Source: Chlamydiota bacterium (GTDB lineage Bacteria > Auribacterota > Tritonobacteria > UBA1439). From it: DNA of 64,000 bases. Below are positions 27,067 to 42,662 of this stretch, in pieces. The stretch spans positions 12,183-76,182 of the forward strand of contig JAAYCL010000020.1 in NCBI GenBank assembly GCA_012729785.1, in the 5' to 3' direction. The translations under genes and the position numbers were made by a program. The notes under the pieces are model-generated. The model searched no databases. It saw nothing but the letters and a program-made list of their open reading frames with translations, and was not told the DNA's origin. Every line of letters begins with the position of its first letter. Position 1 is the stretch's first letter.

Positions 27067-27126
27067 CCGGGCATGCATCCCCGCGCGGGCCGCCGCGCCG
27101 GGGGAGGATGCCCGGTTCGTTTTTTA
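27067..27126 (+). terminator. Intrinsic terminator after the YdjM-like gene
   Basis: Stem of 8 bp (27067-27074 with 27108-27115) closed further by CCCC/GGGG inside, then a T-rich tract (six T's at about 27120-27125, continuing AT-rich to 27136). The remaining 27127-27302 is GC-rich without a gene or clear motif. Confidence 0.75.
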
Positions 27127-27302
27127 ATATATTTTTGAACGAACGCCCGCCGGCGTCGTCGAAACATCCGAAGAGGACCGATCGGGCGGGCGACCCCCTC
27201 GCGGGCGCGCCCGGTCGCCGGTGCGGCGGCCTCTCCGTCCGGTCCCCGGCCGTCCTCGAGCCCGGCCGCGGGGAGGGAGTGGCTCGCGCGGCCGGCGCGT
27301 CT

Positions 27303-27331
27303 TTGAGTTGCACGCCCCCCTGTAGTATAGT
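27303..27331 (+). promoter_or_regulatory. Promoter of the sigma factor/HtrA/Bat island
   Basis: TTGAGT (27303-27308), 17 bases, TATAGT (27326-27331). It looks like a housekeeping promoter, with no obvious ECF-type AAC/GTC pair, about 40 bases before the sigma-factor ATG. Confidence 0.65.
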
Positions 27332-27371
27332 GTCTGGTACGCCTGGTGCGCCGCGGCGGACGCGGGGGGGT

Positions 27372-27929
27372 ATGGAGTTCACGGAAGAGGATCTTGTACG
27401 CCGCGCGAGGGGGCGCGATCGCGACGCGTTCAGGCAGCTCGTCGAGCGGTACCGGGAGCGGGTGTACGGCATCGCCCGCGGGATGACCGGGAATCACGCC
27501 GATGCGGACGACGTCGCCCAGGAGACGTTCATCCGCGCGTACAGGAAGCTGGACGACTTCGAGGGCCGTGCACGCTTCTGCACGTGGCTGTATCGGATCG
27601 CGGTGAACTGCAGCCTCGACCTGCTCAGGAAACGGTTGCGGCGGGCGGAGTTCGACCTCGGGGACGCGGGCGGCGTGGAGGGGCTCGCCGCCGCGGGGGG
27701 ACGGCACGGCGGGGACGGGGCGGCACACCGCGAGCTCATCGAGGCGATCGCGCGGGGGATCGAGTCGCTGCCCGAGAGGCACCGCGCGGTGCTCGTGCTC
27801 CACGACCTGGAGGGGCTGCCGCACGACGAGATCGGCGCCGTGCTGGGGTGCTCGCCGGGGACGGTGCGCTCCCGGCTCCACTACGCGCGGCGGAGGATGC
27901 AGCGGAAGCTGAGGGGCTTCCTCGGGTGA
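27372..27929 (+). CDS. ECF (RpoE-like) sigma factor
   Basis: 185-residue sigma factor with region 2 (LVERYRERVYGIARGMTG...DADDVAQETFIRAYR) and region 4 (LPERHRAVLVLHDLEGLP, then the helix-turn-helix HDEIGAVLGCSPGTVRSRL). It would direct RNA polymerase to promoters of an envelope or stress regulon. A zinc-finger anti-sigma gene follows 47 bases later, and two HtrA genes after that, the same logic as RpoE systems in which protease and sigma factor respond to misfolded envelope proteins. Its targets cannot be told from this window alone. Confidence 0.93.
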   Translation: MEFTEEDLVRRARGRDRDAFRQLVERYRERVYGIARGMTGNHADADDVAQETFIRAYRKLDDFEGRARFCTWLYRIAVNCSLDLLRKRLRRAEFDLGDAGGVEGLAAAGGRHGGDGAAHRELIEAIARGIESLPERHRAVLVLHDLEGLPHDEIGAVLGCSPGTVRSRLHYARRRMQRKLRGFLG

Positions 27930-27976
27930 CGGCGTGCGGGGTGGGGCGCCGGGGGATTGGGAGGGGGGACGGGGAT

Positions 27977-28627
27977 ATGAGATGCCGGAAGGCGGCGAGG
28001 CTTCTCTCCGACCAGGTCGACGGCGCGCTCGACGCGGCGGCCGGGCGCGCGGTCGAGGAGCACCTCGCGCGGTGTCCCTCGTGCGCAAACGCGCGGGACA
28101 GGATCGAGCGCACGCGCCGCCTCCTCCTCCAGGCGCGGGCGGTCCGGCCCGGCGACGGCTACTGGGAGAGGTTCTGGCCGCGGCTTGCACAAAGGCTCGA
28201 CGCGGCGGAGGAGGGGAGCGGATCGATCCTCGCCTCGGTGCGCGCGTTCCTCTCCCGCCAGCGGCGTGCGGGCCTCCTCTCCCCGGCGCCCGCGCTGTCG
28301 CTCCTCGCCCTGGGCTGCTTCAGCGCGTTCCTCGTCATGCAGTTCATGCACAGACCGGGTACGGGCCGAGAGGCGCCCGCCCCCGCCCCCGCAGCTGTCG
28401 TGTCGGCGGCGCGGAACCTGCCGCGCCACGCGCCGGTCGAGGGAGCCGGGCCGCGGTTCGGGGTCGATGCGGTGCTCTGCGACGGCGCGGGGCGCACGGG
28501 GATAGACGAGTACGTGCTCCAGCCGGCGGCGCTTTTCCGGAGCGGTGGAAACGCCCGGGGGATCGACTTCGTCCTCTCGCGTCCGTCCGTCCGGTCGCGG
28601 CGCGCGGAGCCGTACGGAGCATACTGA
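27977..28627 (+). CDS. Zinc-finger anti-sigma factor, single-pass membrane protein
   Basis: 216 residues. The N-terminal anti-sigma domain has an early Cys (MRCRKAARLLSDQVDGAL) and HLARCPSCAN, the Hx3Cx2C of zf-HC2 anti-sigma factors. One membrane helix follows (around residues 97-118), then a Pro/Ala-rich periplasmic segment of about 95 residues with no recognised domain. Placed between the ECF sigma gene and the HtrA genes, it probably holds the sigma factor inactive until an envelope signal releases it. Start at the ATG at 27977, set by the conserved MRCRKA start. Confidence 0.85.
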   Translation: MRCRKAARLLSDQVDGALDAAAGRAVEEHLARCPSCANARDRIERTRRLLLQARAVRPGDGYWERFWPRLAQRLDAAEEGSGSILASVRAFLSRQRRAGLLSPAPALSLLALGCFSAFLVMQFMHRPGTGREAPAPAPAAVVSAARNLPRHAPVEGAGPRFGVDAVLCDGAGRTGIDEYVLQPAALFRSGGNARGIDFVLSRPSVRSRRAEPYGAY

Positions 28628-28661
28628 AGGGGGCCGCCCGTCCCCCGCGGAGGGTTCGCCT

Positions 28662-30000
28662 GATGAAGACGCTTTTCGCGGCGCTCCTGATACTCCTCGC
28701 AGCCGTCCGGGCGGATGCGGGAGGGAAAGAGGAACCGCTGCTCGCGCGGATGGGCCGCGAACTCGAACGGTTCGCCGCCGCCGTGCGTCCCTCGGTCGTG
28801 CAGGTCATCGCCGAGTGCGATCCCTCCGCGCAGGGGGCCGGTTTCGAAGGCGGCATGCGCGGGAGGGGCGGGATCTTCCGTGCCGCCACCAGGCGTTCCG
28901 GCAGCGGCTTCTTCATCAGCCGGGACGGGCACATCCTCACCACCGCCTACGTCGTCCGCGCCGCGCGGCGGATCGTCGTCCGGCTCGACGACGGCGCCGA
29001 GCACGAGGCGCGACTGTGCGGGAGCGATCCCGGGCTAAACGCCGCGGTGCTCGGGATCGAGGGGGCGCGGCGAAACCCGCCTCCGCTCGGCGATTCCGAC
29101 CGGCTGCGCCCGGGGAGTTTTGTCTTCGCGATCGGCAACCCGTTCGGTCTCGCCGGGAGCGTGATCCCGGGCGTCGTAGCGGAGCGCGGCAGAACCGTCC
29201 CCGAGATCGCCGAACTCGCGGAGCTGCTCCAGGTGAGCGCGAGCATCAACCCCGGGGACAGCGGCGCGCCGCTCGTCGACGCGGGCGGGGAGGTGGTGGG
29301 GATCCTCGCGGCCTCGATGGGCGGCCCGGGCGACGCGGGCGACGCCCCGCAGGGGATCTGCTTCGCGGTGCCGCTCAACGCCGTGAAGGGGGCCCTCCCG
29401 GCGCTCATGGCGGGAGAGGAGATCGAGCGCGGGTGGCTGGGCGTGGGGGTGCAGGAGCTCACCCCGGCGCTCCAGGCGGAGTTCGGCGTCCTCGACGGGC
29501 GGGGGGTGATGGTGGCGCGCGTGATCGAGGGGGGTCCCGCCGCCGCCGCGGGCGTGCGGTCGGGGGACGTCGTGCGCGCCTTCGACGGCGCCCCGGTGCG
29601 CAGCCCGCGCGAACTGATCGCCCGCGTCGCGGCGGCGCCGGCGGGCTCCGACGCGACGCTGGTGCTGATGCGGAACGGGAGGGAGGAGACGCTCTCCGTC
29701 CGGATCGGCAGGCGCGCCGTCTCCTTCGCTCCCATGGCCGAGGGCGAAACCTCCCGCGGGCTGGGGCTGGTGGTCGGGGAGGCCGAGCCCGGCGAGGATG
29801 GAGCGGCGGTCGAGATCAGGGAGGTCCGGCCGGGCAGCCCGGCCGCCCGCGCGGGCCTGCGGCCGGGCGACCGGATCCTGGAGGCGAACAGGAAGCGGGT
29901 GTCGGGGCCGGAGGAGTGGGAGGCCGCCGTCGGCCGGAGCGGCGTGGAGAGGATCCTCGTCAGGACGCAGCGGGGCTTCTTCGTCATCAGGGGCGACTGA
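28662..30000 (+). CDS. HtrA/DegP-like protein with two PDZ domains, predicted inactive protease
   Basis: 446-residue exported protein (signal peptide to about residue 18). The trypsin-like domain aligns well with DegP (AIGNPFGL, ASINPGDSGAPLV), but at the catalytic His position it has Tyr (ILTTAYVV, residue 96, family ILTNxHVV) and at the catalytic Asp it has Asn (PGLNAAVL, residue 126, family SDIAVL). Only the Ser (about residue 200) remains. Two PDZ domains follow (around 250-345 and 360-440) with intact GWLGVGVQ and GLRPGDRI motifs. A binding or chaperone role, or partnership with the intact HtrA encoded 16 bases downstream, is likely. The three-residue reading comes directly from the translation. 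Confidence 0.88.
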
Positions 30001-30016
30001 GCGAAAGGGGGGGGCG

Positions 30017-31132
30017 GTGAGGAACAGACTGTGTGCGGCCGCGGCGGCGTTCCTGCTCGCGGGAACGGCGTTCGGGCAGGGGGGGGCGCGCGACGCGGGG
30101 GAGCGGGCCGCCTCGCTCCAGGCGGCCTTCATCCGGGTCGCCAACGAGGTCGGGCCCTCCGTCGTCGGGGTCTACAACATCAGGAAGGCGCGGGTGGCGG
30201 GCTTCGTCGTGCGCCCGGGGGGGCATTTCGACCTCGACGAGTTTTTCAGACAGTTCGACAGCCCGATCGAGCGGCGGAGCATCGGCTCCGGGGTCATCAT
30301 CGATCCGGCGGGGTACATCCTCACCAACGAGCACGTCGTGGGGAACGCGGACGCGATCGAGGTGATGCTGCCCGACGGGCGCAGGTTCGAGGGGAGGGTG
30401 GCCGGGACGGACGCCCGCTCCGACATGGCGGTGCTGAAGATAGACGCCGAGAATCTCCCCGCCGCGACCCTCGGCGACTCCGACGGCGTGAAGACCGGCC
30501 AGTGGGCGATCGCGATCGGCAACCCGTTCGGCATCGTCGAGGAGAACCCGATGCCCACGATGACGGTCGGTGTGGTGAGCGCGCTCCACCGGAGGCTCGG
30601 CGGCCCCGCCATCGGGGGGAGGTACTACGGCGACCTGATACAGACCGACGCGGCGATCAATCCCGGCAACAGCGGCGGCCCGCTCCTCAACCTGAACGGC
30701 GAGGTCGTGGGGATCAACGCGGCGATCATCAGCCCCTCGGGGGCGTTCGCGGGGATCGGCTTCGCCATCCCGGTGAACAGGGCGAAGGAGGTGCTGCAGC
30801 AGTTGAAGGAGGGGAAGGCGATCGACTACGGGTGGCTCGGCATCGGCGTGCAATCGCTCGATCGGGACCTCGCGGCGGAGTTCGGCGTGTCCGATCTGCT
30901 CGGGGCGCTCGTGGTGACCATCGTCCCGGGAAGCCCCGCGGCGGCGGCGGGGATCGCGGTCGGCGACGTCATCCGGGAGTGCACGGGCGTCCAGGTCAAG
31001 GACGCGGACGCGCTGATGGAGCAGATCGGCACCACGCGCGCCGGCACGACGCTGCGGCTCAAGGTGCTGCGCGAGGGGCGGGAGGTCGCGATCGACGCGA
31101 CCGTGGGGAGGAAGGGTGAGAAGGTTACCTGA
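30017..31132 (+). CDS. HtrA/DegS-like serine protease with one PDZ domain
   Basis: 371-residue periplasmic protease. Signal peptide to about residue 20, trypsin-like domain with complete triad: His106 (ILTNEHVV), Asp136 (RSDMAVLKI), Ser219 (INPGNSGGPL), then one PDZ domain (around 270-365). One PDZ domain makes it DegS-like in layout, though a cleavable signal rather than an anchor is predicted. GTG start at 30017 with a purine-rich site upstream. Neighbour of an HtrA lacking two triad residues and of a sigma/anti-sigma pair, so it may cut the anti-sigma factor or degrade envelope proteins. Confidence 0.93.
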   Translation: MRNRLCAAAAAFLLAGTAFGQGGARDAGERAASLQAAFIRVANEVGPSVVGVYNIRKARVAGFVVRPGGHFDLDEFFRQFDSPIERRSIGSGVIIDPAGYILTNEHVVGNADAIEVMLPDGRRFEGRVAGTDARSDMAVLKIDAENLPAATLGDSDGVKTGQWAIAIGNPFGIVEENPMPTMTVGVVSALHRRLGGPAIGGRYYGDLIQTDAAINPGNSGGPLLNLNGEVVGINAAIISPSGAFAGIGFAIPVNRAKEVLQQLKEGKAIDYGWLGIGVQSLDRDLAAEFGVSDLLGALVVTIVPGSPAAAAGIAVGDVIRECTGVQVKDADALMEQIGTTRAGTTLRLKVLREGREVAIDATVGRKGEKVT

Positions 31133-31192
31133 CCGGCGCCGTCCGCGCGTAGGCGCAACGCCGGGCCCCGCGGTCCCGGGCGGGGGTGAACG

Positions 31193-32062
31193 GTGAGCGC
31201 GCCGCCGGGGCGAAACGCCCTGTATGCGGCGGTCTTCGCCGGTTGCGCGGCCGCGTCGCTTGGCCTCGCCGCCCGCCCCGCGCGCGCCGGCGGCCTGACC
31301 GGCGCGCTCGCCGCCGACAAGAGCCGCGTCGCGGAGGGGGGGATCGTCCGCCTTGTTTTGACCGTTTCCGGCCCGGCCTCTTCGCCCGCGATCCGCCTGC
31401 TGCAGCCGCTTTTCCCGCCGACGGAAAGATTCGAGCTCCTCTCGACCGGGCAGCGCAACGAGATCTCGATCGGGAAGGACGGAGAGACATTCTCGGCGGC
31501 GTTTCTCTACACGCTCCGCGCGCGGGAAGCGGGGGAGGAGAGGATCCCGGCGTTCGAGGTGCGGGAGAAGGTCGGGGACGGCGAACAGGGCGAGAAGGGC
31601 GGGGAGGAGAGAGACACGCTCCTCCTGACCGTGGAGGGCATCACGCTTGTCGTCGAGCCCCCGGGGAGGGGCGTCTATCGCGCGGGGATCGTCGTCGCCG
31701 CAGTCGCCGGCCTCTCCGCGGCCGCCCTCGCCGCCTCCTGTCTTGCCCGCCGCCGGAGGCCGCTCTCCGCCGCGCCGCCGCCCCCTCGCGGCGGATGCGC
31801 GCTCGCGGCCCTCGCCGCGATGGAGGATGCGCGCCCGCTGTTGGGCGCGGGGGATCGGGGCGCGTACGCCGGCGCGATACACCCCGCCCTCGCGGAGTGC
31901 GCGGCGCGGGAGGGGGACGAGGAGCTCGCGGCGCTCGCCGGTTCGCTCGCGGCGCTCCGGGAGCGCGTCCGGTACGCCAAAGACGAGGAGGCGGAGCGCG
32001 AAATCCGCGACGGCGTGCGCAGGGCCGAGCAGATCCTCAAGCGCAAGCTCCGGGACGCCTGA
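31193..32062 (+). CDS. BatD-like membrane protein (short form 1)
   Basis: 289 residues, GTG start. A probable signal sequence, then a beta-rich extracytoplasmic domain (to about residue 155), one membrane helix (around 162-183) with a run of arginines, and a helical cytoplasmic tail. The layout matches a shortened BatD with the C-terminal helical region found in Bat operons, and it is followed by moxR and DUF58 genes. No catalytic motif is visible. One of three proteins of this layout in the cluster (also 35522 and 39994). The 60 bases upstream hold a GC-rich dyad but no T-tract. Confidence 0.6.
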   Translation: MSAPPGRNALYAAVFAGCAAASLGLAARPARAGGLTGALAADKSRVAEGGIVRLVLTVSGPASSPAIRLLQPLFPPTERFELLSTGQRNEISIGKDGETFSAAFLYTLRAREAGEERIPAFEVREKVGDGEQGEKGGEERDTLLLTVEGITLVVEPPGRGVYRAGIVVAAVAGLSAAALAASCLARRRRPLSAAPPPPRGGCALAALAAMEDARPLLGAGDRGAYAGAIHPALAECAAREGDEELAALAGSLAALRERVRYAKDEEAEREIRDGVRRAEQILKRKLRDA

Positions 32063-32278
32063 GCGGGAGGGAGACGTCGCGGGGGATGGGGCGGAACGGC
32101 GTCACGCGGCAGGAACGAAGCCGCGCCCGCCGTCCGCGAGGCGATGCCGTTTTGGAAGAGGCGGAGGCGGGGAATCCGGCGGGTCGCCGCCGCGGATCGG
32201 CGCGGCTGGAACGCGGGATCGGTGTCGTTTGATTCGCGGAGCGCAGCGGCACACGGGAGGTTGAGAGGGGGGATCGCG

Positions 32279-33268
<990 letters not shown>

Positions 33269-33340
33269 CGGCCCTCCGGCCCTCACCCCCCCGCCCCGGG
33301 TCCGCAAGACGGCGGTGCGGGGTTCGATAGGCGGGAACGA

Positions 33341-34222
33341 ATGCTCCCGAGAGAGATACTGAAAAAGGTCCGGCGCATCCAGATCTTCACGACCCGGATG
33401 GTCCAGGACGTCTTCGCGGGCGAGTACCAGAGCGTCTTCAAGGGGCGCGGGATGGAGTTCGAGGAGGTCCGCGAGTACCACCCCGGGGACGACGTGCGGA
33501 GCATCGACTGGAACGTCACCGCGCGCACCGGGCACCCGCACGTGAAGGTGTTCAGGGAGGAACGCGAGCTCACCGTGATGTTGCTCGCGGACGTCAGCGC
33601 CTCGGGGACGTTCGGCAGCGTCCGGCAGCGCAAGGAGGAGCTGATCGCCGAATTCTCCGCCGTGCTCGCCTTCGCCGCGATCAACAACAACGACCGGGTC
33701 GGGCTGATCTTGTTCAGCGACCGGATCGAGAAGTACCTCCCCCCGAAGAAGGGGGTCACGCACGTCCTGCGCGTCATCAGGGAGCTGCTCTACCAGTCCC
33801 CGCGGGGGAGGGGGACCGACATCGGCGCGGCGCTCGAGTTCTTGAGCAGGGTGGCCACGCGGAGGACCGTCTCGTTCCTCGTCTCGGACTTCCTCGCCTC
33901 CGGCTACGAGCGGGCGCTCTCGATCGCCGCCAGGCGGCACGATCTGATCGCGGTAGAGGTCGTCGACCCACGGGAGCGGGCGCTCCCGGACGCGGGGATC
34001 ATCGAGTTCGAGGATCCGGAGACCGGGGCCGCCGTCGCGGCCGACACCGGCGACCGGAGGGTGCGCGAGGCGTTCGAGCGGATCGCGGCCCGGCAGGCGG
34101 AGATGCGCAACGACTTCCTCGCCTCGCGCGGCGTCGACCGGATCCGCGTGGAGACCGCGCGGCCGTACGCGGGGGAGCTCCTGAAGTTCTTCAGGGCGCG
34201 CGAGCACAGAATGGCGATCTGA
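33341..34222 (+). CDS. DUF58 domain protein (VWA-like), MoxR partner
   Basis: 293-residue cytosolic protein of the DUF58 family that accompanies MoxR ATPases in Bat-type operons. The family hallmark FEEVREYHPGDDVRSIDWNVTAR is clear, here given only in part, and a degenerate VWA fold follows (LLADVSASGTFGS, then DFLASGYERAL). It has no membrane helix. It sits 72 bases after moxR and is followed by the parvulin lipoprotein gene. Function in the family is not settled; assembly or activation of the VWA membrane proteins is the usual suggestion. Confidence 0.92.
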   Translation: MLPREILKKVRRIQIFTTRMVQDVFAGEYQSVFKGRGMEFEEVREYHPGDDVRSIDWNVTARTGHPHVKVFREERELTVMLLADVSASGTFGSVRQRKEELIAEFSAVLAFAAINNNDRVGLILFSDRIEKYLPPKKGVTHVLRVIRELLYQSPRGRGTDIGAALEFLSRVATRRTVSFLVSDFLASGYERALSIAARRHDLIAVEVVDPRERALPDAGIIEFEDPETGAAVAADTGDRRVREAFERIAARQAEMRNDFLASRGVDRIRVETARPYAGELLKFFRAREHRMAI

Positions 34223-34296
34223 ACCCCGGGGCGGGCGTTCCGTTCCCGGGCGGTGAAAACGGCGGCGCGCGAGAGGCGCCGTGAAAGGAGAGGACG

Positions 34297-35412
34297 ATGA
34301 GGGGGGCGATGACGGTGTGCGTGGCGGCGGGGATCTGCCTTTGCGGATGCGCCGCCCCGGCGGGCAGGGCGGATGCCCCGGGGGGGACGGCCTCTGCGGC
34401 CGCGCCGGCGGGCGCGTCGGGCGAGGTGCTCGCGAGGGTCGGCGGCACGGTGATCACGGACAGGGACCTCGACGAGAAGATCGCCTCGATGCCGGCCAGG
34501 GTCGCGGGGCGTTTCCGCACCCCCGTGGGGAAGAGAAACCTGCTCTCCACGATGGTGGAGCTGGAGATCATCTCCCGCGAGGCGGCCGCGAAGGGGCTCG
34601 ACAGGGACCAGGAGACGCTCGCGCGCATCGAGGACGCCCGGAAGCGGATCGTGGCGGAGAAGCTGCGCGAACAGGTGCTCGAATCCGTGGAGGTGGACCG
34701 GGACGAGATCCTCAAGGAGTACGAAAAGGATGCGGACCGCTACAAGACCCAGAAGCAGGTCAGGGTGAGCCAGATCCTCTTCACATGGGACGCGGCCGCC
34801 CCCCCGAAGACGATCGATGCGGTGAAGCAGGATGCGGCGAAGATCCTCGAGCGCGCGAGGAAGGGCGAGGAGTTCGCCGAGCTCGCCCGCAACTACTCGC
34901 TCGACCGGGCGAGCGCCTCGAAGGGCGGCGACATCGGCTACGCCACGCGGCGATCCCTGACCTCGGAGGCGTACGCCGCCGCGATGGCGATGGAGAAGGA
35001 GGGCGAGCTCAGCGGGTTGATCGAGGGGAAGGACGAGCTGCGCATCCTCAAGGCGACCGAAATCGTCCCCGAGAGGAAAAAACCGTTCGAGGAGATGAGC
35101 GCCTGGCTCGAGCGCACCGTGCGGAGCAGGAAACAGCGCGAGGCCTGGAGCGCCTACCTGGCCGAATTGAAGAACAGGGAAGGCGTCGAGATCTACGAGG
35201 AGAAGCTCGGCGCGGCCGAGGGGACGGCGGAGAGCGGCCCCCCCGCCCTCAGGCGGCCGAGACGCCCCCGGCCGGAGGAGGGGCCGCAGGGCGCGGTTAA
35301 AATCAACCTCGGGGGGCCGAGCAGTTCGACAGGGGCCTCCGGCTGGGTGCAGCCCGACAAAGGGAAGGAGCAGGCGCCTCCCGCATCGGCCCCGTCTTCC
35401 GGGGCGATGTAG
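34297..35412 (+). CDS. Parvulin-type peptidyl-prolyl isomerase, lipoprotein
   Basis: 371-residue SurA/PrsA-like chaperone. Signal sequence with lipobox-like ICLCGC (Cys near residue 18), N-terminal SurA-type helices, then the parvulin domain (VRVSQILF ... ARKGEEFAELARNYSLDRASASKGG ... IGYATRR), each quoted in part. The family His in SHILF is Gln here (SQILF). A low-complexity Pro/Gly-rich tail of about 60 residues ends the protein. Its place inside a MoxR-Bat operon is not usual and points to envelope protein folding. RBS GAAAGGAGAG. Confidence 0.85.
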   Translation: MRGAMTVCVAAGICLCGCAAPAGRADAPGGTASAAAPAGASGEVLARVGGTVITDRDLDEKIASMPARVAGRFRTPVGKRNLLSTMVELEIISREAAAKGLDRDQETLARIEDARKRIVAEKLREQVLESVEVDRDEILKEYEKDADRYKTQKQVRVSQILFTWDAAAPPKTIDAVKQDAAKILERARKGEEFAELARNYSLDRASASKGGDIGYATRRSLTSEAYAAAMAMEKEGELSGLIEGKDELRILKATEIVPERKKPFEEMSAWLERTVRSRKQREAWSAYLAELKNREGVEIYEEKLGAAEGTAESGPPALRRPRRPRPEEGPQGAVKINLGGPSSSTGASGWVQPDKGKEQAPPASAPSSGAM

Positions 35413-35438
35413 GGCACCCGTCTCCTCAGGGCGTCCTC

Positions 35439-35472
35439 CCTTCCCCCTCCCCCCGCGGGGGGAGGGGGAGGG
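35439..35472. repeat. GC-rich hairpin between the parvulin and next bat gene
   Basis: 16-base arms (35439-35454 and 35457-35472, one G-T pair and one mismatch) with a 2-base loop, followed by TTT. It may attenuate or end transcription from the parvulin side, or stabilise mRNA ends. The T-tract is too short to call it a terminator with confidence. Confidence 0.5.
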
Positions 35473-35521
35473 TTTCCCCCGATGCGGTTCCCGCGGACTC
35501 GGGGAAAAGGGTAACGACACG

Positions 35522-36502
35522 GTGACGACGAGAACCGGCTGCGTCCTTCTGTGCAGTGCGCCGCTCCTGGCGGGCTCCGTCGCGCGCGGCGCAGAGGCGC
35601 CGGCGTGGCGTCCGGAAGGGGTGCGCGTCACCGCGTCGGCCGCCCCCACGAGGGTGACGGTCGGCGACCCGGTGCGGTACGCCTTCTCCGTCTCCGCCCC
35701 CGAGGGGCTCGAGATCGATCTCCCGCCCGTCGCCGCGCGGGCGGGGGATTTCAGCGTGCGGGAGACGGGACGCGCGGTTCGCCGCGACCCGAAGGAGAAG
35801 CGCGAAGAGGTCGCGGCCGTCTACGACCTGCGCGTCTACGAAACCGGCGACAAGGAGATTCCGCCGTTCAGGGCGATCGTGCGGGACCGGGAGGGGAGGT
35901 CGGCGGAGATCGACGGCGGCGCCGTCGCGGTGACGGTGGAGAGCGTCCTCGACGCGGATTCGAAGGAGATACGGGATATCAAACCCCCGATCGCCCTGCG
36001 GCGGTTCCCCGCCCGGCTCGCGGCGATCCTCGCCGCCGGCGCGGGCGCCATCGCAGTCGCGGCCGCCTTGGTGTTGCGCCGCCGCCGGCGGCGGGAGGCC
36101 GCGCCCGCCGTTGCGCCGCGCCCGCCGCACGAGATAGCCCGGGAGGAACTCCGGCGGCTTCGGGCGATGCATCTGCCCGAAGCGGGACGCGTGGCGGAGT
36201 GCTATGTCCGGCTCTCGGGAATCGCCCGGCGCTACATCGAGGCGCGGTTCGGCCTGCGGGCGCCCGACAGGACCACCGAGGAGTTTCTCGCCGAGGCGGG
36301 CAGGGGGGGCGTTCTGGATGCCCGGGCGCGGGTGCTCATCGGCGATTTTCTCGAGCGGTGCGATCTGGTGAAGTTCGCGCGCTACGGCCCCACCGCCGGG
36401 GAGGTGGACGGGGCGTTCGATGCGGCGGAGCGATTCGTGGAGGAGACGGCGCGGGAACGCGAGACGGGAGAGGTGCGAGGGGAGACGGGAGGAGTGGCCT
36501 GA
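35522..36502 (+). CDS. BatD-like/DUF4381-type membrane protein (short form 2)
   Basis: 326 residues, GTG start. A signal sequence, an extracytoplasmic beta domain with VTVGDPVRYAFSV (oxygen-tolerance/BatD pattern), one membrane helix (around 161-185) followed by a strongly basic stretch, and a C-terminal helical domain (YVRLSGIARRYIEARFG ... FLERCDLVKFARYGP) that recurs at the end of BatD-type proteins. Its stop overlaps the batA start (TGATG). Likely a periplasmic and cytoplasmic adaptor for the BatA/BatB VWA proteins; no enzyme motif. Confidence 0.75.
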   Translation: MTTRTGCVLLCSAPLLAGSVARGAEAPAWRPEGVRVTASAAPTRVTVGDPVRYAFSVSAPEGLEIDLPPVAARAGDFSVRETGRAVRRDPKEKREEVAAVYDLRVYETGDKEIPPFRAIVRDREGRSAEIDGGAVAVTVESVLDADSKEIRDIKPPIALRRFPARLAAILAAGAGAIAVAAALVLRRRRRREAAPAVAPRPPHEIAREELRRLRAMHLPEAGRVAECYVRLSGIARRYIEARFGLRAPDRTTEEFLAEAGRGGVLDARARVLIGDFLERCDLVKFARYGPTAGEVDGAFDAAERFVEETARERETGEVRGETGGVA

Positions 36503-37497
36503 TGCGCTTCCAGAGTCCGCTGCTCCTCCTGCTGCTGCTCGCGATCCCGCCGGCCGCCTGGCTCCGGCTGCGCCGGCGCCCGCCCGCGGTGAACTTCCCC
36601 GCCTTCAACGCGCTCCGGGAGGCGTTGCCGGCGGGAAGGATCCGCCTCTCCCGCCTCCCGCTCATCCTCAGGTGCCTGGCGGCCGCCTGCATCGTCCTCG
36701 CCCTGGCGCGGCCGGTGCAGGGGGTCGGGCGCGCAAGGGTCTTCGCCGAGGGGATCGACATCGTGCTGGCGCTGGATCTGTCCAGCAGCATGGACGCCCG
36801 CGACATGACCGGCGATTTGCGGGTGAACCGGCTCGACGCGGTGAAGGAGGTGGTGAAGCAGTTCATCCCGGCGCGGCGCAACGACCGGATCGGGATCGTC
36901 GCCTTCGCGCGATACGCCTACACCATGTCCCCGCTCACGCTCGACCACGACCTGCTCCTGGAGATCGTCGACCGGCTGAAGATCGTCCCGCGCGGGGGGG
37001 AGGAGGACCGGACCGCGATCGGCTCCGCCATCATCGCCGCCGTCGCGCGACTGAAGGATTCGGAGGCGAAATCCAAGGTCGTCATCCTCCTGACCGACGG
37101 GGTGAACAACATCGGCGAGATCGGCCCCGAGAGCGCGGCGGAGATCGCCAAGAGCCTAAAGATAAAAATCTACACCATCGGCGCGGGCACGAAGGGGCTC
37201 GCCCCCTACCCGGTCTCGGTGATGGGGCGGGTCGTCTTCGAACGCGCCCCGACCGACATCGACGAGGAGACGTTGCGCATGATCGCGCGGACGACCGGCG
37301 GGCAGTACCACCGGGCGCAGGACGAAGAGGCGCTCCGGCGGATCTACGACCGGATCAACGCGATGGAGAAGGTTCAGATCGAAGAGGACCGTTTCTCCGA
37401 GCATCGCGAACTGTTCCCGTTCCTCCTGATCCCGGCGTTCGTCCTCCTCTTCGCGGAGGCGGCGGCAGGCGCGACGGTGTTGCGGAGGCTGCCCTGA
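36502..37497 (+). CDS. batA: BatA-type VWA-domain membrane protein
   Basis: 331 residues. Two N-terminal helices (around 6-20 and 55-73) flank a short loop, followed by a VWA domain with an intact MIDAS (DLSSSMD, then LTDGVNNIG) and a C-terminal membrane helix (FLLIPAFVLLFAEAAAG). This is the Aerotolerance BatA layout. The VWA face is predicted in the periplasm. ATG overlaps the stop of the preceding BatD-like gene. MoxR and DUF58 products from the same cluster are its probable partners. Confidence 0.92.
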   Translation: MRFQSPLLLLLLLAIPPAAWLRLRRRPPAVNFPAFNALREALPAGRIRLSRLPLILRCLAAACIVLALARPVQGVGRARVFAEGIDIVLALDLSSSMDARDMTGDLRVNRLDAVKEVVKQFIPARRNDRIGIVAFARYAYTMSPLTLDHDLLLEIVDRLKIVPRGGEEDRTAIGSAIIAAVARLKDSEAKSKVVILLTDGVNNIGEIGPESAAEIAKSLKIKIYTIGAGTKGLAPYPVSVMGRVVFERAPTDIDEETLRMIARTTGGQYHRAQDEEALRRIYDRINAMEKVQIEEDRFSEHRELFPFLLIPAFVLLFAEAAAGATVLRRLP

Positions 37498-37503
37498 TAT
37501 GCA

Positions 37504-38544
37504 GTGGGGAAACGCGTCGTTCCTGCATCTGCTCTGCTGGTGGCGGCCTTCGCCCTGTTCCTGAAATGGGCCGCGGGTCGTCGGCGCAGGGCGCTGGAGA
37601 GATTCGCCGAGCCGGCGCTCGCCCCCGCCCTCGTCATCGGCCTGAGCGGCCGGCGGCGCAAGGCGCGGGCGCTCCTTTTGACGGCCGCCCTCGCCCTCAT
37701 CGCGGTCTCCCTCGCCCAGCCCAAGTGGGGCTACCATTGGCGGCGGGTGACGCGGGAGGGGATCGATATCGTCATCGCCATGGACACCTCCAAGAGCATG
37801 CTCGCCGCGGACGTGAAGCCGGACCGCCTCACCCGGGCCAGGATGGAGGTGAGCGAGCTGTTGGACCGCCTGCGGGGGGACCGGGTGGCGCTCGTCGTCT
37901 TCGCGGGGACGGCCTACACCCTCTGCCCGCCGACGCTCGACTACGCGGCGCTCCAGATGTTCCTCAAGGCGGTGCGGGTGGGGGTCGTTCCGCTCGGCGG
38001 CACGGATATCGGGGGCGCCATCGGGCAGGCGATCCGCATCTTCGAGGAGGGCGAGCGCGAGCACCGCGCGCTCATCCTCCTCTCAGACGGGGAGGATCTG
38101 CGGGAAGGGACCGAGGCCGCGGCGAAGAGGGCGAAGGAGCTCGGCGTGAAGATCTTCTCGGTGGGGATCGGGAGCCCGTCGGGCGAGCTGATCCCTGTCG
38201 AGGACGACGCGGGGGGCACAAGCCACCTCAAGGACCGCGAGGGGCGGGTCGTGCAGACGAAGCTGGACGAGCGCACGCTCCAGCAGGCGGCCTTGTTGAC
38301 GGGGGGCGCCTACGTCTATCCCTCCGGCGGAACCTTCGGCCTCGTGACACTGTACGAGCAGGAGATCGCCGAGATGGAGAAGAAGGAGCTCGTGGAACGG
38401 CAGCGGAGGGTGTACGTCAACCGGTTCCAATGGCCGCTCGCCGCGGCGTTCGTCCTCCTCTGCGTGGAGACGGCGATAAGCGAGCGGATGGGCCGCAGGA
38501 AACGGGGGCCCGCCCGGGCGGGAGTCGGGGGGCGCGGCGCATGA
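37504..38544 (+). CDS. batB: BatB-type VWA-domain membrane protein, 5' end apparently frameshifted
   Basis: About 346 residues from the first in-frame GTG: a membrane helix, the RRRRALERFAEP segment common in BatB, a second helix, a VWA domain with MIDAS (DTSKSML, then LLSDGEDL) and a C-terminal helix. The normal N-terminus appears in another frame: ATG at 37499, two bases after the batA stop, reads MQWGNASFLHLL and then hits a stop at 37562. Restoring one C near 37534/37535 joins it to LLVAAFALFLKWAAG and gives a typical BatB start. So either the assembly lacks a base or the cell uses the GTG or slips. The end overlaps the TPR gene in ATGA. Confidence 0.85.
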   Translation: MGKRVVPASALLVAAFALFLKWAAGRRRRALERFAEPALAPALVIGLSGRRRKARALLLTAALALIAVSLAQPKWGYHWRRVTREGIDIVIAMDTSKSMLAADVKPDRLTRARMEVSELLDRLRGDRVALVVFAGTAYTLCPPTLDYAALQMFLKAVRVGVVPLGGTDIGGAIGQAIRIFEEGEREHRALILLSDGEDLREGTEAAAKRAKELGVKIFSVGIGSPSGELIPVEDDAGGTSHLKDREGRVVQTKLDERTLQQAALLTGGAYVYPSGGTFGLVTLYEQEIAEMEKKELVERQRRVYVNRFQWPLAAAFVLLCVETAISERMGRRKRGPARAGVGGRGA

Positions 38545-39200
38545 GCGGATTCGGCGCGTGGAGGAGGATCGGGGCGGGCGTCGCCGCGGCGGCCCTCTCC
38601 GTCTCCTCTCTCGGCCTCTCGTATCCCGCCGCGCGGAAAGCCGTGCGGGGCGACGAGGCGTACCGGAGGGGCGACTACGGGGAGGCGCTGCAGCGCTACT
38701 CGGAGGCGCTGGCGGAGGCGCCCGAGGAGCCGCGGCTCTTCTTCAACATCGGCGACGTCCTCTACCGCCAGGGGGGCTACCCCGAGGCCGTGAAGTTGTT
38801 CCAGAGGGCCGCGGTGACGGGCGATTCGCGGCTCCGCGCGAAGTCGTGGTACAACATCGGCAACGCGCACTACCGCTCCGCCGCGCGGGAAGGCGCGCCG
38901 GAGGCGGCGGGGCAGGCCGGCGACATGGAGGCGCTGAAGCGGTCGGCCGCCTCCTACATCAGGGCGCTCGAGTGCGCCCCCGACGACCTGGACGCGAAGT
39001 ACAACCTCGAGTTCGTCCAGCGAGAGATCCGGAAACTGGAACAGCAGCAGCAAAAGCAGAAAAACAAGGAGGAGGAGAAGGAAAAGGAGAAGGAGAAGGA
39101 CAAGCGGCAGGAACAACAAGACAAGGATGATAAAGACAAAGAGGACGAGCAGGACAAGCCGCCCCAGTTCACCTATCGCCCTGCGCCGGACGAGGAGTGA
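38541..39200 (+). CDS. batC: BatC-type TPR protein, probably lacking its C-terminal tail
   Basis: 219 residues. Signal-like helix (around 10-30), then three TPR units (DEAYRRGDYGEALQRYSEAL; LFFNIGDVLYRQGGYPEA; the YNIGNAHYRSA region) and a long Glu/Lys/Gln-rich charged segment. BatC-type proteins I know usually close with a short conserved tail ending in KDW after such a charged linker. Here the protein stops at PDEE, and a tail of that kind is found at the end of the next gene. It overlaps batB by four bases. Confidence 0.8.
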   Translation: MSGFGAWRRIGAGVAAAALSVSSLGLSYPAARKAVRGDEAYRRGDYGEALQRYSEALAEAPEEPRLFFNIGDVLYRQGGYPEAVKLFQRAAVTGDSRLRAKSWYNIGNAHYRSAAREGAPEAAGQAGDMEALKRSAASYIRALECAPDDLDAKYNLEFVQREIRKLEQQQQKQKNKEEEKEKEKEKDKRQEQQDKDDKDKEDEQDKPPQFTYRPAPDEE

Positions 39201-39202
39201 GT

Positions 39203-39928
39203 ATGCGATTGAACGCAGTGCCGAGTCGCGCAGTTATCGCTGCGGTACTGGTGTGTGCGGCATCTGTGACCCCGCGCGCCCATGCCGCCAAAAACGATGT
39301 GCCGTCGGGCGCCGGCCGGACCGAAGTGGATACAAAGGGCACGCCCATCTGGTGGCAGGGCATGCTACACAAGGACGGCGATGTCGATTGGTACCGCTTT
39401 GATTCAGAAGAGCCGGGGATGCTCAATCTGGCGTTTGAAAAACCTGCAGGGAAGGAGTTCTTCTGTAGCCTTTTTTCGGAGGGCGATACCCGCACGCCTA
39501 TTATTGCGGTGCCGCCCGGAGAGGTGGGGAAGAAGTTCAACGGATACACCGCTGTGAAACTGGGAAGGGGGACGTACTTCCTCAAGATCTGGGGATCGCC
39601 GGGCCATTTCTCCAAGAAGCAGGATGAGAAATATCAGTATGCGCTCACCGTGCCGATGGGGGGCGGCACGGGGGGCGGCGCCAACCAGCAGCAGCCTCAG
39701 CAGGAGCATGAAACCCCCCAGCCGCAGCAGGCGCAGCCGACCCCCCAGGTGACGCAGACCCCCCAGGCGCGACAGGAAGGACAGCCGGTCCCAAAGGCAG
39801 GTGGAGAACTGACGGAGGATCAGGCAAGGGCGCTGATCGAGGCGCTCGAGCGGGAGGAGCGCGACCCCACGCACCTGCTCCAGATCGAGGGCGCCCCCGC
39901 AGAGACGCACGCGGACAAGGATTGGTGA
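39203..39928 (+). CDS. Exported PPC-like beta-domain protein with a BatC-like KDW tail
   Basis: 241 residues. Signal peptide (to about residue 28), a beta-sandwich-like domain with DGDVDWYRFDSEEPGMLNL, the pattern of bacterial pre-peptidase C-terminal (PPC) domains, then a Gln/Pro-rich linker (around 150-195) and LTEDQARALIEALEREER ending in DKDW. The first about 580 bases are visibly less GC-rich and use more A/T-ending codons than all neighbours, while the last about 130 bases return to local composition. That suggests a foreign segment inserted in front of the batC tail. Two bases separate it from the batC stop. Function unknown. Confidence 0.78.
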   Translation: MRLNAVPSRAVIAAVLVCAASVTPRAHAAKNDVPSGAGRTEVDTKGTPIWWQGMLHKDGDVDWYRFDSEEPGMLNLAFEKPAGKEFFCSLFSEGDTRTPIIAVPPGEVGKKFNGYTAVKLGRGTYFLKIWGSPGHFSKKQDEKYQYALTVPMGGGTGGGANQQQPQQEHETPQPQQAQPTPQVTQTPQARQEGQPVPKAGGELTEDQARALIEALEREERDPTHLLQIEGAPAETHADKDW

Positions 39929-39978
39929 CGGTCGCGGTTCCCGGCATCTCGTTGCTGGTTTCCGCGGGGAGCGGAGGA

Positions 39979-39984
39979 TATACT
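39979..39984 (+). promoter_or_regulatory. -10 element directly before batD
   Basis: TATACT nine bases before the batD ATG, no Shine-Dalgarno between. A convincing -35 is not seen (TTGCTG at 39952 is 21 bases away). It implies an internal, possibly leaderless, start for batD and batE. Confidence 0.4.
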
Positions 39985-39993
39985 TACGCCGGT

Positions 39994-41838
39994 ATGCGCA
40001 CGCTGGTCTGCGGCATTGTGGCGGCATGCATCTGCGCTCCGGGAAGCGCCGGCGCGGCGGAGCTCTCCGCCTCGGTGGACCGGAACGTCGTCTCCCTCGA
40101 CGACCGGCTGGTGTTGAGCGTGGAGGTCTCGGGGGCCGGGCAGGGGAGCGCCCCCGAGCTCCCCCCGCTCGACGGTTTCGCCGTCGCCCACACGGAGCGC
40201 TCGACACAGATCCAGATCGCGAACTTCCAGATGACGACGAGCGCCCGGTACGACTACACCCTCGTTCCCCTCAAGGCCGGCAGGCTCGTCATCGGCCCCG
40301 TCACCCTGCGGGAGGGGGACCGGGAACAGCGCACGCCGCCGATCACGGTCGAGGTGCTCGACCGAGGCCGTCCGGTTCCCCCCTCCCCGCCGCCTTCCGG
40401 CGCCGGCCGCCCGGCTTCGCCCGCCCCGCGCGAACCCGACTCCGCCCCGGGCGCCGCGCCGCCGGAGCGGATGTTCATCGAGATCGAGGCCGACAAGACG
40501 AATCCGTGGCTCCGCGAGCAGGTCATCCTCACCTTCAGGTTCTGTTACGCCGACGTGGCGCTCGCGGATCAGCCCGTCTACGAGGCCCCCCCCGCGCACG
40601 GCTTCGTCGAGAAGCAGCTTGGCGACGGGAGGAGCGTCAACTCCACCCGCGTGATCAACGGCAGGCGCTACCTGGTAAGCGAGCTCAAGACCGCGCTCTA
40701 CCCGTACCGGACGGGGGAGCTCGCCGTGGGCCCGGCGCGCCTCAAGGGGAACATCCTGGCCGATTCGCCGCGTCGCGCGCGCCCCCCGCGCGGCTTTTTC
40801 GACATGGACGATTTCTTCGGCGATCCGTTCTTCGGCGGCTTCGTCAAGAAGCCGTTCTCGCTCGTCTCCAACGAACTGAAGATCGACGTCCGCCCCCTCC
40901 CGAAGGAGGGGGCGCCGGAGGGGGAGGTCCCGGTCGGCAGGTACCGACTCGCGGTGGAGGCCAAGCCGCGGGAGGTCCGTGCGGGCGACCCGGTCACGCT
41001 CACGATGACGCTCACCGGCGAGGGGGACCTGGAGCGTGTGCCCCCGCCCCGGGTGCGCGCCCTCGACGGCTTCAAGAGCTACGAGCCGACCGGGAGCGTT
41101 TCGGCGGGGGGCAAGACGTTCGAGCAGGCGATCGTGCCGCTCGACGAGAAGATCACCGAGATCCCGCCGGTGATCTTCACCTATTTCGATCCCGGCGAGG
41201 GGCGGTACGTGACCCTGAAGGAGGGCCCCGTTCCCCTGAAGGTGCTCCCGCCGCAGGAGGGCAACGGGAAGATCGTGAGTCTGCCGTCGGCGGCGGGGGG
41301 GCGGGACGTGCAGCTCATCGAGAGGAACATCGTCTTCATCAAGACCTCGCCGGGAACGCTGAAACGGGAGGCGGCCACGGAGGCGCCGGGAGTTCGTTTC
41401 TGGCTCCTCCAGGCGGTTCCACTTATCGCGGTCGCCGCGGCGGCCGCGCACGCGCGGCACCGGTCGCGCCTTCGCTCCGACCGCGGGTATGCCCGCCTCC
41501 ACCGCGCCGGGCGGGCCACCCGGGCGCGCCTGAAATCGGTCGAGAGGGCGATGCGGAAGGGGAACGCGGAGGAGTTCTACGGCGGCATCGCGAAGGCGGT
41601 GAGCGGCTATGTCGCCGACCGGCTGAACATGCCGGCGGGGGGGATGACGCCCGATCTGGTCCGCGAGGCGCTGGCCTCGCGGGGGGTGGACCCCGGGCTC
41701 ATCCGACGCCTGGACGAATTGTACCGGACCTGCGACCTCGCGCGTTTCGCCCCCTCCGGCGCGGCGGGGAACGAGATGGCGCACTGCCACGGCGAGGCGA
41801 CGGGGGTGCTGGAGGAGCTCAGGAGGGGGAGATGGTGA
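39994..41838 (+). CDS. batD: BatD (oxygen-tolerance family) membrane protein
   Basis: 614 residues. Signal peptide (to about residue 22), three beta-rich extracytoplasmic domains (ELSASVDRNVVSLDDRLVLSV; FIEIEADKTNPWLREQV; RLAVEAKPREVRAGDPVTL, the last two partial) typical of the BatD family, a membrane helix (around 469-487) and a helical cytoplasmic C-terminus similar to the end of the 35522 product. The ATG at 39994 fits the signal peptide and the promoter; an in-frame extension upstream covers non-coding sequence. Its stop overlaps batE by seven bases. Confidence 0.9.
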   Translation: MRTLVCGIVAACICAPGSAGAAELSASVDRNVVSLDDRLVLSVEVSGAGQGSAPELPPLDGFAVAHTERSTQIQIANFQMTTSARYDYTLVPLKAGRLVIGPVTLREGDREQRTPPITVEVLDRGRPVPPSPPPSGAGRPASPAPREPDSAPGAAPPERMFIEIEADKTNPWLREQVILTFRFCYADVALADQPVYEAPPAHGFVEKQLGDGRSVNSTRVINGRRYLVSELKTALYPYRTGELAVGPARLKGNILADSPRRARPPRGFFDMDDFFGDPFFGGFVKKPFSLVSNELKIDVRPLPKEGAPEGEVPVGRYRLAVEAKPREVRAGDPVTLTMTLTGEGDLERVPPPRVRALDGFKSYEPTGSVSAGGKTFEQAIVPLDEKITEIPPVIFTYFDPGEGRYVTLKEGPVPLKVLPPQEGNGKIVSLPSAAGGRDVQLIERNIVFIKTSPGTLKREAATEAPGVRFWLLQAVPLIAVAAAAAHARHRSRLRSDRGYARLHRAGRATRARLKSVERAMRKGNAEEFYGGIAKAVSGYVADRLNMPAGGMTPDLVREALASRGVDPGLIRRLDELYRTCDLARFAPSGAAGNEMAHCHGEATGVLEELRRGRW

Positions 41839-42662
41839 GACCGACGGGAACCGTGCTCCTTTTCGCGTCGCTCCTCGCCGCCCCGCTCGCCGCCGGAGGC
41901 GCCGAAACGGCGCCGCTTCGCGAGACGCCCCAATCCGCGGCGGCCGCCGCGGGCAGGCCGGAGACGAACGCCGACCCGCGCGAAATCTTCGCGCGCGCCA
42001 ACCGTCTCTACGAGGCGGGCGACTACGCCGCGGCGGCGGTGGGGTACGAGAAGCTGGCGAAACGCGGCTACCGGGGCGGGAACCTCTTCTACAACCTCGG
42101 GAACGCCTACCTGAAGCTGGACCGGAAGGGGCCCGCGATCCTCTGCTACCGGAAGGCGTCGCGGTTCCTTCCGCGGGACCAGGACCTCAAGAGCAACCTC
42201 GACTACGCCATTTCCCTCATCGAGGATCGGCTGGAACCGGCGCGCCGGTCGCCGCTCCTGCGGCGGTGGGACGCGGCGGTCGGTTGGTTCACCCTGCCGG
42301 AGTGGCTGCTCGCGGCGGCGGCGATCCTCTGGGCGCTCTGCGCCTCGCTGGTCGTCATGATCTACGCCCCGCCCGCGCGGCCCGCCTTCTCGAGGGTCTC
42401 CGCGACGCTCGCTGTTCTCCTCCTCGCCGCCTCCGCGGCCGCCTTTTCCCGCGCCCGCGTCGAGAGGCGCGAGGAGGCGGTCATCCTCGCCCGCGAGGCG
42501 CGCGTCAGGTACGGCCCCTCGGAGAACGACGTGGTCGCCTTCCTGCTCCATGAGGGGGCGACGGTCGAGGCGAGGAACGAGAAGGGGGACTGGCGCCAGG
42601 TGTCTCTCCCGGACGGGAAGGCGGGGTGGGTGCGGAAGGAGGAGTGCGGCCTCGTCCAATGA
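41832..42662 (+). CDS. batE: BatE-type TPR/SH3 membrane protein
   Basis: 276 residues: signal peptide, TPR units (EIFARANRLYEAGDYAAAA; NLFYNLGNAYLKLDRKGPA), two membrane helices (around 155-175 and 180-205), and a C-terminal bacterial SH3 domain (ILAREARVRYGPSEND ... WRQVSLPDGKAGWVRKEE). This is the BatE layout and ends the plus-strand cluster that began with the sigma factor. ATG overlaps the batD stop. Five bases separate it from the convergent small gene. Confidence 0.88.
   Translation: MVRPTGTVLLFASLLAAPLAAGGAETAPLRETPQSAAAAAGRPETNADPREIFARANRLYEAGDYAAAAVGYEKLAKRGYRGGNLFYNLGNAYLKLDRKGPAILCYRKASRFLPRDQDLKSNLDYAISLIEDRLEPARRSPLLRRWDAAVGWFTLPEWLLAAAAILWALCASLVVMIYAPPARPAFSRVSATLAVLLLAASAAAFSRARVERREEAVILAREARVRYGPSENDVVAFLLHEGATVEARNEKGDWRQVSLPDGKAGWVRKEECGLVQ

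What the first reader, a model, noticed from the sequence alone, without database searches (positions are those of the whole stretch)
27303..42662. 15-kb island joining ECF sigma/anti-sigma, an HtrA pair, parvulin and a MoxR-Bat cluster
All genes run in one direction with short gaps. Sigma, zinc-finger anti-sigma, protease-dead HtrA, active HtrA, then BatD-like, MoxR, DUF58, parvulin lipoprotein, second BatD-like, BatA, BatB, BatC, PPC-like protein, BatD, BatE. The combination is what an RpoE-like envelope-stress loop with its own VWA/MoxR remodelling machine would look like. Bat operons are known, but I do not know of this fusion with a sigma/HtrA module.
Basis: partly seen in the sequence, partly recalled or inferred. 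Interest (0 to 1): 0.68.

Follow-up and report, generated by a model that had tools for sequence, protein, structure and literature searches.

The report
Stress-sensor island joined to MoxR-Bat genes
A 15-gene block in an uncultured bacterium couples an alternative sigma factor, its membrane inhibitor and a protease-like sensor that has lost its catalytic residues to the poorly understood MoxR-Bat membrane machinery; the coupling recurs in several related families, which gives a testable lead on what Bat proteins do.

Summary
In the window's phylum the sigma/anti-sigma(/HtrA) half sits directly upstream of MoxR-Bat in nine genomes from five families. It is absent in nine other genomes whose loci can be judged, in 30 Omnitrophota and in about 16 Planctomycetota. 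The linked sigmas cluster on a tree.

(1) All eight sigma-linked HtrAs have lost catalytic His and/or Asp, while nine other HtrAs keep the triad. (2) Two relatives fuse the zinc-finger anti-sigma directly to PDZ domain(s), with no protease. (3) A rare ECF-type promoter, TTTTGAAC-N16/17-CGTC or close to it, precedes the sigma gene in four genera. (4) In three of those genera (not recognisably in the window) it drives a ~110-nt hairpin RNA with its own terminator, covariation and a shared CCCUCC.

Best reading: an ECF envelope-stress switch whose sensor is a pseudoprotease PDZ platform, co-expressed with MoxR-Bat. Anatomy and conservation are shown; sensing, regulation and co-transcription are inferred. 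A new variant of known kinds, not classical RpoE.

The parts
24594..25922 (+). TctA-family permease; upstream neighbour, conserved upstream of the sigma gene in G003, G004 and G013
   Evidence: Pfam TctA 3.4e-38; synteny
25953..27044 (+). YdjM-like membrane protein; conserved upstream neighbour
   Evidence: Pfam YdjM 1.8e-13; synteny
27097..27126 (+). Intrinsic-terminator-like hairpin + T run that would end the YdjM transcript
   Evidence: sequence
27133..27160 (+). ECF-type promoter TTTTGAAC-N16-CGTC (-35 TGAAC, -10 CGTC) after an A/T tract; same kind of site upstream of sigma in G002, G003, G004
   Evidence: only 4 strict matches in the 2.6-Mb genome, the other three not in front of a recognisable gene
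27303..27331 (+). sigma70-like promoter TTGAGT-17-TATAGT; 17-nt spacing and CCCCYTGTAN spacer end conserved in G002, G003, G004
27372..27929 (+). ECF sigma factor
   Evidence: Pfam Sigma70_r2 1.1e-21, r4_2 2.4e-17; nearest solved relatives SigW and RpoE
27977..28627 (+). Zinc-finger (zf-HC2) anti-sigma with one transmembrane segment (about aa 106-124) and ~90-aa outer tail ending in an aromatic residue
   Evidence: Pfam zf-HC2 8.1e-10; TM and C-termini
28663..30000 (+). Pseudoprotease HtrA (His->Tyr, Asp->Asn, Ser kept) with two PDZ domains
30017..31132 (+). HtrA/Do-type serine protease with intact triad, one PDZ
31193..32062 (+). BatD-like membrane protein 1
   Evidence: Pfam BatD 1.7e-07; profile match to BatD E 1.6e-12
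32279..33268 (+). MoxR AAA+ ATPase
   Evidence: Pfam AAA_3 8.8e-65
33341..34222 (+). DUF58 (VWA-type) protein
   Evidence: Pfam DUF58 2.2e-84
34297..35412 (+). Parvulin-type prolyl isomerase, probable lipoprotein
   Evidence: Pfam Rotamase 4e-16; LCGC lipobox seen in sequence
35522..36502 (+). BatD-like membrane protein 2
   Evidence: Profile match to BatD E 1.5e-23; conserved position
36502..37497 (+). BatA (VWA)
   Evidence: Pfam BatA 7.5e-13, VWA 1.1e-21
37504..38544 (+). BatB (VWA)
   Evidence: Pfam VWA_2 1.7e-19
38541..39200 (+). BatC (TPR)
   Evidence: Pfam TPR_11 5.4e-13
39203..39928 (+).
   Evidence: No Pfam or NCBIfam match; no homologue in relatives' loci
39994..41838 (+). BatD
   Evidence: Pfam BatD 1.2e-29
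41832..42662 (+). BatE-like (TPR + SH3)
   Evidence: Pfam SH3_4 3.7e-08; TPR below cut-off

Best explanation
The island is an envelope-stress switch and its output in one transcription unit. A membrane-anchored zinc-finger anti-sigma holds the ECF sigma. A periplasmic HtrA that has lost its protease activity offers its PDZ domains as a sensor or scaffold on the outer part of the anti-sigma. When misfolded envelope proteins compete for those PDZ domains, the anti-sigma is released to other proteases and the sigma is freed. The sigma drives its own locus from the TTTTGAAC-N16/17-CGTC promoter. In three sister genera this promoter first makes a small C-rich RNA that probably blocks translation of envelope mRNAs at their Shine-Dalgarno sites; some transcripts run on into the operon. 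A housekeeping-type promoter gives the basal level. The operon supplies an active HtrA, a parvulin and the MoxR-Bat complex to repair or remodel the envelope. Shown: gene order and its conservation, triad loss, anti-sigma-PDZ fusions, conserved promoter sequences, the covarying RNA with promoter-like and terminator-like ends. Inferred: sensing, regulation of the sigma, promoter use, RNA targets, co-transcription and Bat as effector.
For: Linkage in nine genomes of five families; linked sigmas need 2 changes on the ECF tree against a shuffled mean of 9.3. All 8 sigma-linked HtrAs lack the full triad, 9 of 9 others keep it. Anti-sigma fused to PDZ in G004 (zf-HC2 plus two PDZ above Pfam cut-offs) and G008 (PDZ E 1.7e-8 and 9e-8 against a PDZ profile built here). 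Aromatic last or penultimate residue in 7 of 8 linked anti-sigmas against 2 of 30 other anti-sigmas, as PDZ ligands often have. ECF-type promoter at sigma in G000, G002, G003, G004; strict pattern found 4 times in G000, once in G003, twice in G004, reversed control 0. Hairpin RNA in G002 (4 copies, 3 with the promoter), G003 and G004; 94.9% pairs kept, 4 pairs with changes on both sides, 2-3 of 500 shuffles as good.
Against: Half of the judgeable genomes of the phylum and all Omnitrophota and Planctomycetota loci have MoxR-Bat without the sigma, so Bat can exist without this switch. No second convincing sigma site was found in the window. In the window genome itself the RNA is not recognisable (fold z +0.59). 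No expression data. The proteases that would cut the anti-sigma were not looked for. The terminator-like RNA between the ECF promoter and the sigma gene means ECF transcription may seldom reach the operon.
Confidence: 0.6

Rival explanations
1. Neighbours without shared function: the sigma/anti-sigma/HtrA module and the Bat operon are separate units that happen to be adjacent by common descent in part of this phylum.
For: Bat loci lack the sigma in nine judgeable genomes of the phylum and in 30 Omnitrophota and about 16 Planctomycetota loci. A sigma70-like promoter and short gaps do not prove one transcript.
Against: Linkage held over five families with large divergence (BatB identity 39-68%) and despite changes inside the module (absence of the active HtrA, absence of the protease domain). 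Same strand and short gaps throughout. In G008 the anti-sigma-PDZ gene sits about 40 nt from MoxR.
Confidence: 0.2
2. Classical RpoE/DegS-type loop: the active HtrA (30017) cleaves the anti-sigma, and the dead HtrA is only a decaying duplicate.
For: An active HtrA lies two genes from the anti-sigma in three f1 genomes. Sigma resembles RpoE and SigW.
Against: The active HtrA is absent from the linked loci of G008, G011, G013, G018, G019 and G022, where the pseudoprotease or a PDZ fusion remains. The dead copy keeps its fold and PDZ domains across families, so it is not decaying. The anti-sigma is zf-HC2, not RseA.
Confidence: 0.15
3. A MoxR-VWA conflict (defence) system of the kind described by Kaur et al. 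2020 (PMC7159879).
For: MoxR + VWA + trypsin-like protein; the MoxR passes the Pfam bpMoxR cut-off (48 bits).
Against: No third component (VMAP, iSTAND, FtsH-like, beta-propeller) in the island. PADLOC finds nothing but a weak trypsin-domain match. The MoxR matches generic AAA_3 far better (217 bits). The full Bat set is present.
Confidence: 0.03

Closest known systems
Bat (Bacteroides aerotolerance) operon with MoxR and DUF58
   Same: MoxR, DUF58, BatA, BatB, BatC, BatD, BatE in the usual order; Bat function itself unresolved (PMC3557215)
   Different: Here preceded by ECF sigma, anti-sigma and HtrA pseudoprotease; extra BatD-like genes; a parvulin inside
Mycobacterium sigE / rseA-htrA-tatB locus (PMC10027907)
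   Same: ECF sigma, anti-sigma and HtrA as neighbours; the meaning of that arrangement is called hard to understand in the review
   Different: Mycobacterial HtrA is an essential serine protease and no MoxR-Bat genes are named there; here the linked HtrA lacks the triad
E. coli sigma-E / RseA / DegS-RseP envelope stress loop (PMC8103513)
   Same: ECF sigma, membrane anti-sigma, PDZ-bearing HtrA-family sensor; small RNAs in the regulon (PMC12249550)
   Different: Anti-sigma of zf-HC2 type; sensor not expected to cleave; two relatives carry the PDZ on the anti-sigma itself
Listeria LhrC multicopy sRNA (PMC4132741)
   Same: Multicopy small RNA linked to envelope stress; a comparable pyrimidine-rich pairing region is from own knowledge
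   Different: LhrC is driven by the LisRK two-component system; this RNA has an ECF-type promoter beside its sigma gene and no Rfam match

Membership tests
ECF sigma factor / ZAS-type anti-sigma pair | Sigma regions 2 and 4 only; adjacent zf-HC2 anti-sigma with a transmembrane segment | tested here: met
RpoE-RseA (gamma-proteobacterial sigma-E) system | RseA-type anti-sigma | tested here: not met
   Only zf-HC2 matched in Pfam; NCBIfam RpoE equivalog for the sigma 128.5 bits against cut-off 236
RpoE-RseA (gamma-proteobacterial sigma-E) system | Catalytic DegS-type site-1 protease as sensor beside the pair | tested here: not met
   Sigma-linked HtrA lacks His and/or Asp in 8 of 8 genomes; an active HtrA one gene further exists only in family f1
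RpoE-RseA (gamma-proteobacterial sigma-E) system | Autoregulated promoter of ECF type | tested here: inconclusive
   Motif conserved at the sigma gene in four genera; activity not testable here
HtrA/Do serine protease (S1C), gene 28663 | His-Asp-Ser triad | tested here: not met
   Tyr, Asn, Ser; fold and PDZ matched
HtrA/Do serine protease (S1C), gene 30017 | His-Asp-Ser triad | tested here: met
   367 bits to TIGR02037, below its 416 cut-off, it has one PDZ only
Bat operon | MoxR, DUF58, BatA, BatB, BatC, BatD, BatE contiguous on one strand | tested here: met
MoxR-VWA ternary conflict systems | Third core component (VMAP, iSTAND, FtsH-like or beta-propeller protein) | tested here: not met
   No such gene in the island by Pfam; PADLOC negative
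Known Rfam RNA families (for the hairpin RNA) | Match at or near a gathering score | tested here: not met

The most novel reading that the evidence does not exclude
A new class of envelope-stress switch in which the sensor is a catalytically dead HtrA (or just its PDZ domains fused to the anti-sigma) that controls the sigma by binding rather than cutting, with an ECF-driven anti-Shine-Dalgarno small RNA, and with the MoxR-Bat complex as a dedicated effector; this would give the Bat proteins a physiological role.
Probability: 0.3. Interest if true: 0.85.

Novelty: new variant of a known kind. Interest (0 to 1): 0.62.

Why it matters
Bat proteins are widespread, yet deletion in Leptospira gave no phenotype and their function 'remains elusive' (PMC3557215). 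A conserved link to an ECF sigma, anti-sigma and PDZ sensor suggests when they are needed and supplies a reporter-based test. The repeated loss of HtrA catalysis and the fusion of anti-sigma to PDZ argue that PDZ binding alone can be the sensing step, which differs from the DegS paradigm. Searches of the held library showed no paper describing the combination; most subscription journals are not held.

Tried and rejected
Defence-system reading: PADLOC negative and no third component. Decaying-duplicate reading of the dead HtrA: rejected because it is dead but otherwise conserved in eight genomes, while other HtrAs keep the triad. The hairpin as a mere YdjM terminator: rejected because a separate terminator-like hairpin precedes the ECF promoter in G000, G002b and G004, and the RNA has its own promoter-like site and occurs in extra copies. 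RNA in the window genome: not found, even with filters off. Wider regulon by pattern: the relaxed pattern TTGAAC-N16/17-CGTC gave 20, 16 and 16 hits against 5, 5 and 11 in the reversed controls, too noisy to name targets. Known RNA families: none. Taxon: unnamed; only that the phylum also holds the MAG 'Chlamydiae bacterium B51_G9'. No structure prediction was run: it would not decide between the readings.
Full report
WHAT IS THERE. The window lies in an unnamed 2.6-Mb genome (G000, 96.6% complete). Fifteen genes run on the + strand from 27372 to 42662. Pfam gives, in order: ECF sigma; zf-HC2 anti-sigma; Trypsin_2 + two PDZ; Trypsin_2 + PDZ; BatD domain; MoxR; DUF58; parvulin; (nothing above cut-off); BatA/VWA; VWA; TPR; (no hit); BatD; SH3 with weak TPR. 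The first unmatched gene fits BatD by profile (E 1.5e-23). The second (39203-39928) has no recognised domain and occurs only here. MFS and RecJ genes on the other strand follow, so the unit ends at a convergent boundary.

IS THE LINKAGE MORE THAN CHANCE? BatB was sought in 37 genomes of the phylum and the loci were read and annotated with profiles built here. The sigma/anti-sigma pair lies directly upstream of MoxR-Bat on the same strand in G000, G002, G008, G011, G013, G018, G019 and G022. In G003 it is split over three contigs whose ends fall inside the genes. These nine genomes fall in five families. Nine judgeable genomes lack it (G006, G007, G009, G014, G016, G017, G020, G031, G033); several others are cut by contig ends. 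None of about 30 Omnitrophota loci and 16 Planctomycetota loci with at least ~3 kb upstream of MoxR has it. One planctomycete locus (L182) has an active HtrA, BatD-like, MoxR, DUF58, parvulin and Bat without sigma. On a tree of 50 ECF sigmas the ten Bat-type ones need two changes of label against a shuffled mean of 9.3, none of 500 shuffles as low; one origin is not ruled out, and support for the main group is weak (82/70). The tenth, G004, has no BatB found and its sigma lies near a contig end.

THE PSEUDOPROTEASE. In eight genomes (G000, G002, G003, G011, G013, G018, G019, G022) the HtrA next to the anti-sigma has lost His (7 of 8) and/or Asp (7 of 8, always Asn). Ser is kept except in G022 (Ala); in G003 it is read from the second contig. 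Nine other HtrAs, namely three active neighbours, five from elsewhere in the phylum and one planctomycete, keep His-Asp-Ser.

THE FUSIONS. In G004 (L084:207-1379) one open frame holds zf-HC2 (residues 14-48), a membrane segment and two PDZ domains homologous to those of the pseudo-HtrA, with no protease domain. In G008 (L015:7695-8513) a zf-HC2-like N-terminus, weak in Pfam, a membrane segment and a C-terminal PDZ-like domain (below the Pfam cut-off; hmmsearch E 1.7e-8 and hhalign E 9e-8 against the PDZ profile built here) sit between sigma and MoxR. Two fusions in separate families tie the PDZ domain physically to the anti-sigma. The linked anti-sigmas end with an aromatic last or penultimate residue in 7 of 8, against 2 of 30 other anti-sigmas of the phylum. 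This is only suggestive of a PDZ ligand; relatedness is not corrected for.

CONTROL REGION. Between YdjM and sigma the genomes G000, G003 and G004 share, in order, an ECF-type promoter and a sigma70-like promoter with exact 17-nt spacing and a CCCCYTGTAN spacer end; G002 has both in front of its sigma. In G000, G004 and the second G002 copy a separate terminator-like hairpin lies before the ECF promoter. The strict ECF pattern TTTTGAAC-N15/17-CGTC occurs four times in G000 (the other three not in front of a recognisable gene), once in G003 (this site) and twice in G004 (one is this site); reversed controls are zero in these genomes. My arithmetic: four sites placed at random give about 2e-4 for one to fall in the 300 nt before sigma on the right strand. 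The pattern was taken from these sequences, so the genome-wide rarity, not the match, is the evidence.

THE RNA. Downstream of that promoter G002, G003 and G004 carry a hairpin RNA with a U-tract (about 105-130 nt from promoter to U-tract). A covariance model from four sequences found it at sigma in G002, G003 and G004 and three more times in G002, one of those next to YdjM on another contig. Three of the four G002 copies have the promoter; one of these has the variant -35 CGAAC. Over six sequences 94.9% of cells pair, four pairs change on both sides, only 2-3 of 500 shuffles do as well, and sliding the strands destroys it. A CCCTCC stretch shared by all copies is unpaired in the G003 and G004 folds and could pair with GGAGG. 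There is no Rfam match. The window genome has the promoter but no recognisable RNA, so this part is a property of sister genera.

HOW IT PROBABLY WORKS. See the best explanation. The weakest steps are the direction of PDZ control, the fate of the anti-sigma and whether Bat is an effector. The fusions make a PDZ-anti-sigma contact likely; the missing triad makes DegS-type cutting by this protein unlikely.

COMPARISON AND NOVELTY. The parts are known kinds. The E. coli loop uses DegS with a PDZ sensor that unlocks cleavage (PMC8103513). Mycobacteria have sigE next to rseA-htrA-tatB, whose meaning is called difficult (PMC10027907). Bat proteins have no settled function (PMC3557215). Full-text searches showed no paper describing the combination, and the PDZ survey PMC6411480 does not mention anti-sigma factors in its main text. 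I rate it a new variant of a known kind.

Noticed in passing
L182:11839-13377 (planctomycete G184): An HtrA with intact triad lies directly upstream of BatD-like, MoxR, DUF58, parvulin and Bat genes, without any sigma factor: a second HtrA-Bat association.
   Followed up: partly
L098:1500-1640 (G002:C159): Second copy of the hairpin RNA with its ECF-type promoter, right after TctA-YdjM, the genes that precede the sigma in the window; suggests a rearrangement or duplication in G002.
   Followed up: partly
G002, nine places (e.g. L085): Repeated element TTTTGAACCGTTCAGTGTCCTCAGCGTC matches the ECF pattern, probably by chance; it looks like a dispersed repeat.
   Followed up: no
L019:11416-11781 (G013): A 23S rRNA intervening-sequence-type protein gene sits between MoxR and DUF58.
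   Followed up: no
L015:9167-10522 (G008): A GGDEF diguanylate cyclase gene directly precedes the sigma gene.
   Followed up: no
G004 and G012: No BatB match in two genomes over 90% complete; G004 still has the sigma and the anti-sigma-PDZ fusion near a contig end.
   Followed up: no
L014:7303-7848 and relatives (genus g6): In the parvulin position of the Bat cluster these genomes have a short TPR protein instead.
   Followed up: no
window 39203-39928: Probably secreted protein of unknown fold between BatC and BatD, found only in the window genome.
   Followed up: partly
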